Assembly (NCBI GenBank): GCA_023663945.1
Contig: JAMPGL010000038.1
Location: 1 to 36,147 of the forward strand
Origin: Lachnospiraceae bacterium
GTDB taxonomy: Bacteria > Bacillota > Clostridia > Lachnospirales > Lachnospiraceae
Length of the DNA stretch: 36,147 nt
Direction: 5' to 3'
Shown here piece after piece: positions 1 to 27,300 of the stretch. A program made the translations under genes and the position numbers. Every line of letters starts with the position of its first letter. Position 1 is the first letter of the stretch. Below the pieces are notes generated by a model. It was not told the origin of the DNA. It worked only from the letters and a program-made list of their open reading frames with translations, and ran no database searches.

Positions 1-167
1 ACATCTGCTACACATTCCTCTACATCTTGAACAGAAGCAGCATTTATTAAAATTGACGCTGCAATCTTCCAAAGGAGTTTTGAATACTTTCTTACAACAA
101 ATGCCAGCATTTGCTCATCCCGTTTGATAATTGCCGTAATTATTTTTTTGTCATCCAGTATAAACAC
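1..167 (-). CDS. Sigma-70 family (ECF-like) RNA polymerase sigma factor, N-terminal fragment
   Basis: The minus strand is open from a GTG at 167 to the window edge (55 codons). The peptide begins FILDDKKIITAIIKRDEQ and continues through KYSKLLWKIAAS to VQDVEECVADV. This is the start of sigma region 2 in ECF-like factors, where an initial helix is followed by a 'DAEECVNDV' type motif. The rest of the gene is outside the window. GAGGAAAGAG lies directly upstream. GTG is the likely start, but a CTG three codons later is possible. A promoter-like sequence sits at 199-227. The gene probably belongs to the mobile element whose right end is near 2660; that placement is inferred from position only. 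Confidence 0.7.
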   Translation of the reverse strand, partial: MFILDDKKIITAIIKRDEQMLAFVVRKYSKLLWKIAASILINAASVQDVEECVAD

Positions 168-198
168 CTCTTTCCTCAACAGCATATTTAACTGACCA

Positions 199-227
199 GT
201 CATATATATTACGAACAAAACTATCAA
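199..227 (-). promoter_or_regulatory. Predicted sigma-A promoter for the sigma-factor fragment
   Basis: On the minus strand TTGATA (222-227) and TATGAC (199-204) are separated by 17 bases, about 30 bases upstream of the GTG start at 167. Called by eye from consensus only. Confidence 0.5.
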
Positions 228-291
228 AAACACTAACTAAAACCAGAAAAAATTTCGGTTTAATGTGGTAAAGGGAGTTTAGAAAACGGAC

Positions 292-426
292 GCTTGTATG
301 GAGATTTATTTCTACGTCGCCACGCTCTCGCTCACTAAAAAGCACAGCAGTACTAGGTTCGAAAATACCTCACCAAGTACTGGTGCTTTTTAATGGGCTC
401 CTTAAGAAATAAATCTCCATACAAGC
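292..426. repeat. IR-1 unit A: 22-bp stem enclosing a core hairpin
   Basis: Bases 292-313 (GCTTGTATGG...TTTCT) are perfectly complementary to 405-426 (AGAAA...ATACAAGC). Inside, 337-391 forms AAAAAGCAC:GTGCTTTTT, a two-base bulge, CAGTACT:AGTACTG, an A-A mismatch, GGT:ACC and a loop containing TCGAAAAT. The T-run after the stem on both strands makes the core look like a bidirectional intrinsic terminator. Confidence 0.8.
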
Positions 427-621
427 TGTCAGTGAAAAGCGTATCTTTACCAATTGGCACTTCTGCTATAGTCGAATGGTTTACCGTATTGACAGTGTTA
501 CGTTGTGTAGTGCTTAACGGTAATTTATCGGAAAATCACCATACAACGAGGTACTGCCAAAACAGTAAATCATTTCACCATAGCCAAGGTGCCAGTTTGA
601 TTTTGCGTCTTCGGAAACCAA

Positions 622-756
622 ACTCGTATCAGGAATAACTTCTTAAGGAGCCCATTAAAAAGCGCCAGTACTTGGTGAGGTATTTTCGAACCTAGTACTG
701 CTGCGCTTTTTAGTGAACGAGAGTGGGGCGACGTAGAAGTTATTCTTGATATGAGT
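622..756. repeat. IR-1 unit B: inverted copy of unit A with a different but still paired 22-bp stem
   Basis: Bases 622-643 pair with 735-756 over 22 positions, with two G-T (G-U) pairs. The stem differs from unit A except at its inner TTCT/AGAA end. The core hairpin (657-711), read on the minus strand, matches unit A almost base for base, but the outer stem has GCGC:GCGC where A has GCAC:GTGC, a compensatory change. Confidence 0.8.
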
Positions 757-861
757 GGTCGTTTTGATAATACGCCTAATCAAACTAAACCGAAACTTAA
801 CATGCATTCCCCCCAAAAGAACCTCATATATTATCACAAACCTTCAAACGGAAGTAATCCT

Positions 862-1098
862 ATGCAAAAACCAACCCATTACCTTTGGCACAGCGATTTT
901 CCCACCGAATCTGAATACGAAAATACCAAAGCACATTTAACTCAGGAGGGATTCCGGATAGTCACTTTTGCGGAGAGACCTGATGGTCAGCAAATATCCC
1001 CTGCCTTTCAAATGCTCCTCCAAAATCATTTATCCGGCACAGCCTGTCAAATTCAGGCTTCCAAAACTCACTCCTTTCCAAGCGGGGGGCTCCTATGA
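862..1098 (+). CDS. Small protein translationally coupled to the serine recombinase
   Basis: This is a 78-residue ORF beginning MQKPTHYLWHSDF and ending SFPSGGLL. I do not recognise the family. The first ATG of the open frame lies earlier, but the ATG at 862 is preferred because ACGGAAG sits about 7 bases upstream and the earlier part belongs to the inverted repeat. The stop TGA overlaps the recombinase start as ATGA (1095-1098), the usual sign of translational coupling. The sequence is polar, has no membrane segment, and includes FRIVTFAERPDGQQISPAFQ. Its position suggests an accessory factor for integration or excision (recombination directionality or regulation), but that is inferred from context only. 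Confidence 0.6.
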   Translation: MQKPTHYLWHSDFPTESEYENTKAHLTQEGFRIVTFAERPDGQQISPAFQMLLQNHLSGTACQIQASKTHSFPSGGLL

Positions 1099-3495: not shown

Positions 3496-3551
3496 GTAAA
3501 AATTTATTTAGTTCATATTTCGTGATTTCACAAAAGCAATATCCCTTCTCC

Positions 3552-3905
3552 TCACCACCTGAAATGCATCCCCTCCGCGTGAATCAACGCCCAATTCATC
3601 ATTGCCAGAAATATGGAAAAGAAAACCAATACCACAGTCAGTATGATTGCCGGAATATCATAGACCATCTTATTTTGTTCCACAATGTTTCCCTGTTCAT
3701 CCAATACCTCTACATTTTTTTGTCTGCTCCCCAGCAGAACCTCGATTCCAAGCCCAATCAGCACAACCGGCCAAAACCGGAACACAATCGCATAATCAAT
3801 ATCGGGAATAAACTGCTGAAGCAGAAATATAACACCTGTTATCACCAATACGCTCCCGAACGTAACGGTGCCGACCCTGCGGGTTCGGATTGTCTGTTTT
3901 CCCAT
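3552..3905 (-). CDS. Small membrane protein with LiaF-type transmembrane domain
   Basis: This is a 117-residue protein. After MGKQTIRTRRVGTVTFGS come hydrophobic helices at about 15-32, 41-58 and 84-106. The TFGSVLVITGVIFLLQQF and FWPVVLIGLGIEVLLGS segments are typical of the N-terminal membrane domain of LiaI/LiaF-like and DUF5668-like proteins, often found with cell-envelope stress regulators. The C-terminal charged domain of full LiaF is absent. GAGGAGCGG lies upstream of the ATG. It is the last gene of the leftward ECF sigma operon, separated from the previous gene by a tandem repeat array. A role in envelope stress is inferred from this context. Confidence 0.7.
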   Translation of the reverse strand: MGKQTIRTRRVGTVTFGSVLVITGVIFLLQQFIPDIDYAIVFRFWPVVLIGLGIEVLLGSRQKNVEVLDEQGNIVEQNKMVYDIPAIILTVVLVFFSIFLAMMNWALIHAEGMHFRW

Positions 3906-26508: not shown

Positions 26509-26734
26509 GTTTCGGTTTAGTTTAATTAGCAAACGTAATACGGTACACTCCGGAGAAAAACAACTTCTACGTCACCACGCTCTCGCTCTCTAAAAGACGT
26601 AGCAGTACTTGGTGAGGTATTTCCGAACCTAGTACTGCTGCGCTTTTTAGTGAACGAGAGTGGGGCAACGTAGAAGTTATTCTTGATACGAGTGGTCGTT
26701 TTGATAATACGCCTAATTGAACTAAAGCCGAAAC
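26509..26734. repeat. Miniature copy of inverted-repeat family IR-1
   Basis: GTTTCGGTTTAGTTTAATTAG (26509-26529) is an almost perfect inverted match to 26713-26734, with one bulge. The right arm (26619-26734) is about 95% identical to 681-796. The left arm follows the outer left arm of the large form (26550-26590 against 310-340). The inner half of each unit is absent. Further stems are AACTTCTACGT:ACGTAGAAGTT and CTCTCG:CGAGAG, then a central AGCAGTACT...AGTACTGCT hairpin flanked by T-runs. It sits exactly between two convergent genes, encodes the last codons of xpt and probably works as a bidirectional terminator. Confidence 0.85.
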
Positions 26735-27300
26735 ACTATCTCTCCCGTCTCAGCATCCATGCTTTCCACAATCGCAAGCGATTCCACGCGGACTCCTTTA
26801 CCGCGGAGCCGCGCCCCGCCCTCCTGAAATCCTTTTTCAATGGCGATTCCCACGCCTTCAATGGAAGCTCCTGCGCTCTCAACCAAGTCAATCAGCCCCT
26901 CTACCGCACATCCGTTAGCTAAGAAGTCATCAATGATCAGCACATGGTCTTCTTTTCCCAGAAACTTCTTGGCAACAATCACATCGTATACTCTCTTATG
27001 GGTAAAGGATTCTATCTTTGTGGTGTACTGCTCCCCGTCCAGATTAATGCTCTGCGACTTCTTGGCAAACACCACCGGAACCTGAAAATATTGCGCCGTA
27101 ATGCAGGCAATCCCAATCCCCGACGCCTCAATCGTCAGTATCTTATTAATCTTATCACTGGGAAAAAGCCTCCGAAATTCCTTTCCCATTTCCTCAAATA
27201 ACTTGACATCCATCTGATGATTCAAAAAACTGTCCACCTTAAGTACATTGCCCGGCTTAACAATTCCATCTCTGCGGATTCTCTCTTCTAAAAGCTGCAC
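26722..27300 (-). CDS. xpt: Xanthine phosphoribosyltransferase
   Basis: This 192-residue protein starts with a GTG at 27300 behind GGAGG. It reads [31 protein letters not shown], then the PRPP-binding motif [14 protein letters not shown], and ends GEIVFRL. It converts xanthine and PRPP to XMP in purine salvage. It is the last gene of an operon with the MATE exporter (36-base gap), so a purine riboswitch directly upstream is excluded. The final VFRL-stop codons lie inside the terminal repeat of the IR-1 element; whether this changed the original end is not known. Confidence 0.95.

What the first reader, a model, noticed from the sequence alone, without database searches (positions are those of the whole stretch)
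253..796. Undescribed-looking 544-bp inverted-repeat element built from two structured units
The sequence shows matching inverted ends (TTTCGGTTTA/TAAACCGAAA), two related units facing each other and a shared short form 26 kb away. No convincing gene lies inside. The layout could fold as outer stem, hairpin A, inner stem, hairpin B, a cross-like shape. I cannot match it to a known insertion sequence, attC site or named RNA. A non-autonomous element mobilised by an enzyme encoded elsewhere, or a large structured RNA, would both fit.
Basis: partly seen in the sequence, partly recalled or inferred. Interest (0 to 1): 0.75.

Follow-up and report, generated by a model that had tools for sequence, protein, structure and literature searches.

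The report
Lachnospiraceae hairpin elements with RNA-like core
The 543-base palindrome is one of dozens of copies, in this bacterium's genome, of a mobile hairpin element whose roughly 100-base folded core was found in about a third of the sampled genera of its family, so it points to an apparently undescribed family of dispersed, RNA-like mobile elements.

Summary
The element is real, and it is not a pair of curiosities. The stretches I fetched from this genome hold 72 distinct terminal repeats. Three short copies are 98-99% identical over aligned positions and have unrelated flanks, so they moved recently. What is conserved is a ~100-nt core, present twice here in opposite orientation (296-421 and 627-752). 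Across Lachnospiraceae it shows strong compensatory pairing and a GNRA-type hairpin loop in 24 of 24 model-found members. A covariance model finds it in 106 of 299 sampled genomes of the family. In an order-wide sample all 27 positives are in the family; of 5 positives in a phylum-wide sample, one lies outside it (own genome counted in each). No Rfam family matches. In related lineages the core sits inside MITE-like elements: 13 of 20 elements have near-perfect 8-bp target duplications (11 of the 13 with the core by the model) against 0 of 380 control pairs; one empty site was found. No autonomous partner was found, and the window's own genome shows no clear duplication. Best reading: non-autonomous palindromic elements moved in trans by DDE-type transposases, with a core that probably acts as folded RNA. 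Its function and transcription were not shown.

The parts
253..795 (.). Long-form palindromic mobile element (543 bp), two inverted core units and a middle region
   Evidence: paralogues, e.g. 93% identical over query 1-543 at G000:C41:43863-44407
253..262 (+). Left terminal inverted repeat TTTCGGTTTA; flank here AAAAA (33 of 72 own-genome ends have TTAAR)
786..795 (-). Right terminal inverted repeat TAAACCGAAA; flank CTTAA
296..421 (-). Core unit A (model R1, 139.1 bits; this unit was in the training alignment): variable stem P1 plus conserved three-way-junction core
627..752 (+). Core unit B (model R1, 134.8 bits; also in the training alignment), inverted relative to A
427..620 (.). Middle region between the two units, largely self-paired in the predicted folds
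   Evidence: folds
26510..26733 (.). Short form (224 bp): outer halves of two units joined at the loop (my reading); lies between convergent genes
   Evidence: 95% identical over aligned positions to the copy at G000:C28 (L078); 0 of 11 relatives' loci at this place has a model R1 match

Best explanation
This is a non-autonomous, MITE-like palindromic element. Its inverted termini are recognised by a DDE-type transposase supplied from elsewhere, and it carries one or two copies of a conserved ~100-nt core that folds into a three-way-junction hairpin. SHOWN: multi-copy dispersal; conserved structure; 8-bp target duplications and one empty site for relatives that carry the same core and have GTAACAGTTCAG ends. 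INFERRED: that the window's TTTCGGTTTA-ended copies move in a similar way, at TTAA-containing sites; that the core acts as folded RNA made by read-through or internal transcription; that long forms lose their interior by recombination between the two inverted units, giving the ~225-bp short forms that also transpose.
For: 93 matches in the own genome and 72 distinct ends. Three short forms 98-99% identical over aligned positions with unrelated 200-bp flanks. Covariation on 37 units: 95.4% of cells paired against 76.1% in shuffles and 45% or less in slid controls; 352 double changes against 112, 0 of 500 shuffles. On 24 model-found units: 93.9% against 62.0%, 349 double changes against 109.5 (this alignment was fitted to the model). 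GNRA tetraloop in 24 of 24, five different loop sequences, closing pairs changed but still paired in 2. Model R1 in 106 of 299 family genomes; order 27 of 295, all same family; phylum 5 of 398, 4 of them same family; the own genome is one of each count. TSD: 13 of 20 with at least 7 of 8 identical, 0 of 380 mismatched pairs; the model finds the core in 16 of the 20 and in 11 of the 13. Empty site L201 against L184.
Against: No autonomous relative found (the end list was cut off). IS1380 absent from the own genome; IS66 absent from two of the three genomes with GTAACAG ends, and the one copy found has no such end within the 3 kb fetched. 14 complete own-genome copies show no target-duplication signal (a TTAA duplication common to all copies could not be seen by that test), and TTAA flanks both sides in only 2 of 14, one side in 8, neither in 4. 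7 of the 20 tested relatives lack a near-perfect duplication. In some genomes, e.g. the 7 fetched copies of G217, I saw no shared termini and the P1 stems are unrelated, which a plain MITE does not explain. G.U versus A.C counts give no consistent RNA strand.
Confidence: 0.6

Rival explanations
1. Dispersed structured RNA that spreads by a retroposon-like or other RNA/ssDNA route (a bacterial SINE analogue) and secondarily rides in MITEs. The core is the primary unit and the stems or termini are acquired at each site.
For: Same core inside elements with different ends (GTAACAG, GTTACTTTTCAC, CACGGAAATC, TTTCGG). In G217 the core is 85% identical between copies while the P1 5' arms are 25% identical, yet 109 of 117 P1 cells pair (model-fitted alignment). 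Structure conserved across genera.
Against: No reverse transcriptase, tail or target-primed signature was looked for. The P1 stems could also be old copies that drifted under pairing constraint.
Confidence: 0.15
2. Single-stranded-DNA hairpin element moved by an HUH enzyme (REP/RAYT or IS200/IS605 style), with TTAA as the flanking target.
For: Palindromic element; TTAAR next to 33 of 72 ends (background 0.3% of positions) but on both sides of only 2 of 14 complete copies; no target-duplication signal in the own genome.
Against: 8-bp duplications in relatives fit DDE transposition. The tetraloop is GNRA, an RNA preference. No RAYT search was run.
Confidence: 0.1
3. Portable bidirectional transcription terminator or insulator selected for its effect on neighbouring genes.
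For: In alignment A1 the P3 stem has A-run/T-run sides. Three terminator-like sites in window 150-900 against 0.4 in shuffles. The 26.5-kb copy occupies the gap between convergent genes where relatives have other sequence.
Against: Only 6 of 24 members in A2 keep a run of four T after P3. Only 5 of 72 sites are convergent (6.9%, background 16.1%), and orientation in tandem sites is 27 same: 26 opposite.
Confidence: 0.1
4. Ordinary decayed MITE whose core is conserved only through recent common ancestry, with palindrome correction mimicking covariation.
For: Arms outside the core are near-perfect palindromes in many of the copies shown. Palindrome correction could create the P1 covariation.
Against: Correction would also erase the asymmetric loops, the GNRA hairpin and the bulge, which persist in the 24 aligned members from other genera.
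Confidence: 0.05

Closest known systems
MITEs (miniature inverted-repeat transposable elements) of bacteria
   Same: Short, no transposase, terminal inverted repeats, many dispersed copies, 8-bp duplications in relatives
   Different: Carries a conserved folded core shared between elements with different ends. No parent transposon found. No clear duplication in the window's genome.
BOX / RUP elements of Streptococcus pneumoniae (recalled, not searched)
   Same: Modular intergenic repeats with stable secondary structure, thought to be mobilised in trans
   Different: Different host family. No sequence comparison was made here. The core here is found in 105 of 298 sampled genera.
REP/BIME mosaics with RAYT (recalled)
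   Same: Mosaic palindromic units, often in inverted pairs, many per genome; another insertion sequence can land in the hairpin loop (L228)
   Different: Much longer units, 8-bp duplications in relatives, GNRA junction core. RAYT not tested.
Rfam structured RNA families
   Same: Covariation, GNRA tetraloop and junction typical of structured RNA
   Different: No match over any unit at gathering scores in the window or 20 related loci. In the element only 7 below-gathering matches, 5 of them microRNA families.

Membership tests
MITE | Terminal inverted repeats shared by copies | tested here: met
   72 distinct TTTCGGTTTA-type ends in own-genome stretches
MITE | No transposase gene inside | tested here: met
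   Only an 81-aa ORF wholly inside
MITE | Dispersed multi-copy with unrelated flanks | tested here: met
MITE | Target-site duplication | tested here: inconclusive
   Met in relatives with GTAACAG ends, 13 of 20. Not seen in 14 own-genome copies; TTAA on both sides in 2 of 14.
MITE | Autonomous transposon with the same ends | tested here: inconclusive
   None found, but the end lists were partial
IS1380/piggyBac-like (TTAA target) | IS1380 transposase in the genome | tested here: not met
   no match in own genome (assembly 94% complete)
IS66-derived | IS66 transposase with GTAACAG ends in carrier genomes | tested here: not met
   no match in G037 and G039; the one copy in G038 has no such end within the 3 kb fetched
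REP/RAYT | RAYT (Y1) transposase with GTAG-footed hairpins | not tested
   no RAYT search was run
Known Rfam RNA | Score above gathering cut-off | tested here: not met
   no hit over any unit (a glmS in L271 and a T-box in L162 lie elsewhere in those loci)
Structured RNA (generic) | Compensatory base changes beyond controls | tested here: met
Structured RNA (generic) | Transcribed | not testable with these tools
   no RNA-seq available

The most novel reading that the evidence does not exclude
The ~100-nt core is a new family of mobile structured RNA in Lachnospiraceae. It is the true unit of selection: it moves between, or is captured by, palindromic DNA elements with different termini, is often deployed as an inverted pair, and is kept in locus-specific stems. 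It would thus be a bacterial analogue of SINE-like RNA parasites riding DNA transposons.
Probability: 0.2. Interest if true: 0.85.

Novelty: new variant of a known kind. Interest (0 to 1): 0.6.

Why it matters
A covarying, GNRA-capped core found in 106 of 299 sampled Lachnospiraceae genomes, not matched by Rfam, and carried by elements that may exceed a hundred copies in one genome (263 termini of one type in a 3.3-Mb genome; of 10 elements tested in that genome the model finds the core in full in 8 and in part in 1), would be a sizeable unannotated component of common gut bacteria. It breaks assemblies, and it offers a test case for why a mobile palindrome would conserve an internal folded structure.

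Tried and rejected
Rejected. (1) Known RNA: Rfam gathering and relaxed scans gave nothing over the units. (2) IS1380 and IS66 as source. (3) L228 looked like the autonomous form (TIRs 1.84 kb apart), but it is an IS4-family insertion sequence (438-aa transposase) sitting in the apical loop of an element, with its own termini. (4) The 4.25-kb TIR pair in L208 encloses a 1072-aa ORF that I read as a sensor kinase, and two separate elements, not a transposon. (5) Terminator as the conserved function: a run of four T kept in only 6 of 24 A2 members, and context not biased to convergent genes. (6) G.U/A.C strand test: inconclusive. (7) A ~957-bp gap in L202 relative to L125 holds an unrelated 318-aa ORF, not a larger element. 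(8) Single-locus comparison at 26.5 kb shows no element in relatives (0 of 11 loci with a model match) but cannot define a target duplication, because the gap is too diverged. (9) The ortholog of L116 in G039 was not resolved as empty or filled. (10) The pattern hit in a 'Proteobacteria' MAG (L142) gave no model hit, and the two viral contigs holding one 18-base end have no model match; both taken as chance. (11) Paper searches (listings and abstract starts only, no paper read) returned no description of this element; the library lacks most subscription papers.

Limits. One search scores at most 11 candidates per genome, so copy numbers are lower bounds. Searches do not say how many sampled genomes lie outside the family. 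Rows of alignment A1 were picked by a pattern that already asks for a G-purine-purine-A loop, so only A2 is cited for the GNRA count; A2 was found with a model built from A1. One search used 113 loci (window and L115-L226) and kept 72 de-duplicated intergenic sites with called genes on both sides, plus 1 inside an ORF; other units were dropped. Genes there are crude ORF calls. One search used 20 elements chosen because both ends match the 14-mer exactly and lie within about 310 bp. One search was given 97 sources (window, L059, L066, L080 and 93 of the 112 pattern loci).

Full report
OBSERVATION. The ends TTTCGGTTTA (253-262) and TAAACCGAAA (786-795) are present, so the element is 543 bp. Arms 250-425 and 623-798 are 81% complementary, and each holds an internal hairpin unit. 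The fold is far beyond shuffled sequence: RNA z = -30, DNA z = -22, 0 of 100 shuffles as good in either case. The short form is at 26510-26733.

COPIES. A DNA search of the same genome (G000, 3.74 Mb, 107 contigs) lists 93 matches, with pieces and both strands counted apart. In the own-genome stretches I fetched there are 39 ends of one subterminal type and 33 of a second, i.e. about 36 element equivalents in what was fetched. Many contigs begin inside or beside a copy, so the element breaks the assembly. The 14 copies with both ends are 433-598 bp (6 copies; the 598-bp one holds a run of N), 342 bp (1), 217-240 bp (6) and 142 bp (1). They are mosaics: the two subterminal types, several stem types and both loop orientations are combined differently in different copies. 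The short form reads as the outer halves of two inverted units joined at the loop, which suggests recombination between the units (inference). Three short forms (L074, L075, L079) are 98-99% identical over aligned positions (L079 is about 16 bp longer), while their 200-bp flanks score 15-18 of a possible 400: recent dispersal.

CORE. Within the genus, 22 of 37 genomes, the own one included, match the 544-bp query, mostly only over the ~100-nt core. An alignment of 37 units (A1) supports this layout: variable P1; AAGGA/GACG internal loop; P2 (RCC/GGY, with GC to AU double changes); long P3 with a bulge and a tandem G.A near the tip; and P4, a 2-bp hairpin with a GNRA loop. 31 of 42 pairs have changes on both sides; 95.4% of cells pair against 76.1% shuffled and 45% or less when slid. 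A second set of 24 model-found members from other genera (A2), aligned to the model and therefore biased towards it, gives 93.9% paired and 349 double-changed cells against 109.5. Its P4 loops are GAGA 10, GAAA 5, GCGA 5, GGGA 2 and GGAA 2, i.e. 24 of 24 GNRA, and 2 of 24 have changed closing pairs that still pair. P1 covariation alone could come from palindrome correction, but the conserved unpaired features could not. G.U against A.C counts do not name a strand (A1 core 25:13, A2 core 10:13). No Rfam family matches a unit at gathering scores.

DISTRIBUTION. Model R1 at E <= 1e-6, own genome counted in each: 106 of 299 family genomes (105 of 298 genera); 27 of 295 in an order-wide sample, all 27 in the same family; 5 of 398 in a phylum-wide sample, 4 in the family and one (G965, three copies) outside. 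These calls do not say how many of the negatives lie outside the family. No match at the sensitivity used in viral contigs (exact pattern), plasmids or phages (blastn of the 544-bp element).

MOBILITY IN RELATIVES. In a Robinsoniella MAG and two other Lachnospiraceae MAGs palindromes end in GTAACAGTTCAGCC; G037 alone has 263 such ends. Of 20 elements (64-308 bp) with both ends exact, 13 have at least 7 of 8 identical flanking bases, against 0 of 380 mismatched pairs; frames of 7 or 9 bases show no excess of near-perfect matches. The model finds the core in 16 of the 20, and in 11 of the 13 with duplications. That is an 8-bp target duplication, typical of DDE transposases. L184 carries an element with CCTGTTTT on both sides, where the orthologous L201 has one diverged copy (CCTGCTTT) and no element. 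Elements with other ends also carry the core: GTTACTTTTCAC (L033, duplication ATTATTTG) and CACGGAAATCAATTTTCAG-like ends (L131 AGATAGTGG, L174 CCTTTGACT). Most other elements gave no convincing duplication, partly because their ends could not be set. So one core occurs within several terminal families.

MOBILITY IN THE WINDOW'S GENOME. 14 complete copies show no duplication at any offset or length tested, though a TTAA duplication shared by all copies would be invisible to that test. TTAAR precedes 33 of 72 ends, against 0.3% of positions at large, but TTAA flanks both sides in only 2 of 14 complete copies, one side in 8 and neither in 4. The move mechanism here is therefore inferred, not shown. 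No autonomous partner was found; IS1380 is absent.

PUZZLES. (i) Within near-complete genome G217 seven copies share 85% of the core but only 25% of the P1 5' arm, yet 109 of 117 P1 cells pair: either core insertion into local hairpins or long compensatory drift. (ii) All 14 unit pairs whose members lie less than 500 bp apart face the same way (left unit on -, right unit on +), as in the window; overlapping hits on palindromic short forms were left out, and one pair about 590 bp apart in L169 has both units on the same strand instead. These are not all independent (L127 and L170 are orthologous loci, and L127, L165 and L195 come from one MAG). (iii) 7 of 13 Rpn (PF04754) genes in the genome have an element within about 0.5 kb, five of them close paralogues with it about 0.3 kb upstream; one of the 13 is cut by a contig start. 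These five may be co-duplicated, and only 4 of 205 loci from other genomes show an Rpn homologue, so this is a lead, not a finding.

CONTEXT AND FUNCTION. 72 intergenic sites: 49 tandem, 18 divergent, 5 convergent, against 262, 61 and 62 background gaps (chi-square p = 0.04, with fewer convergent and more divergent sites); 1 more lies inside an ORF; in tandem sites orientation is 27 same and 26 opposite. I see no sign of a fixed orientation to neighbouring genes. In A1 P3 has A-run/T-run sides like a bidirectional terminator, but 18 of 24 members of A2 lack the T-run, so termination is not what is conserved. My best guess is an RNA-level role tied to the element's own persistence. That step is inference.

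VERDICT. A widespread, Lachnospiraceae-centred and apparently undescribed family of MITE-like palindromes with a conserved structured core; it works like known non-autonomous elements but has an unexplained RNA-like heart.

Noticed in passing
L228 896-2738 (G039:C9): An IS4-family insertion sequence sits in the apical loop of a core-like element, with an ~11-bp duplication GCACTTACGCA; similar insert ends occur in loops of own-genome copies (L097, L111, L112).
   Followed up: partly
L303-L307, L310, L311 (own genome): Rpn-type (PF04754) genes lie within about 0.5 kb of elements in 7 of 13 cases; five close paralogues have it about 0.3 kb upstream.
   Followed up: partly
window 26722-27300 (-): The listed end of the convergent ORF (26722) falls inside the short element's right end; relatives have a different intergenic sequence.
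   Followed up: partly
L061 1640-1750; L110 1-50: Other hairpin repeats (e.g. ACCCCGCAGCTTGCTGCG...) adjoin or interrupt element copies in the same genome.
   Followed up: no
L177 1620-1890: Nested element: one GTAAC-ended palindrome lies inside the terminus of another.
   Followed up: no
L231, L232 (G038:C8): Very short (64-78 bp) GTAACAG-ended palindromes without the core, candidate minimal MITEs.
   Followed up: partly
L193 ~3550-3760: Element with two different terminal types at its two ends (GTAACAGTTCAG on one side, GAAAATTGATTTCC on the other), suggesting terminus exchange.
   Followed up: no
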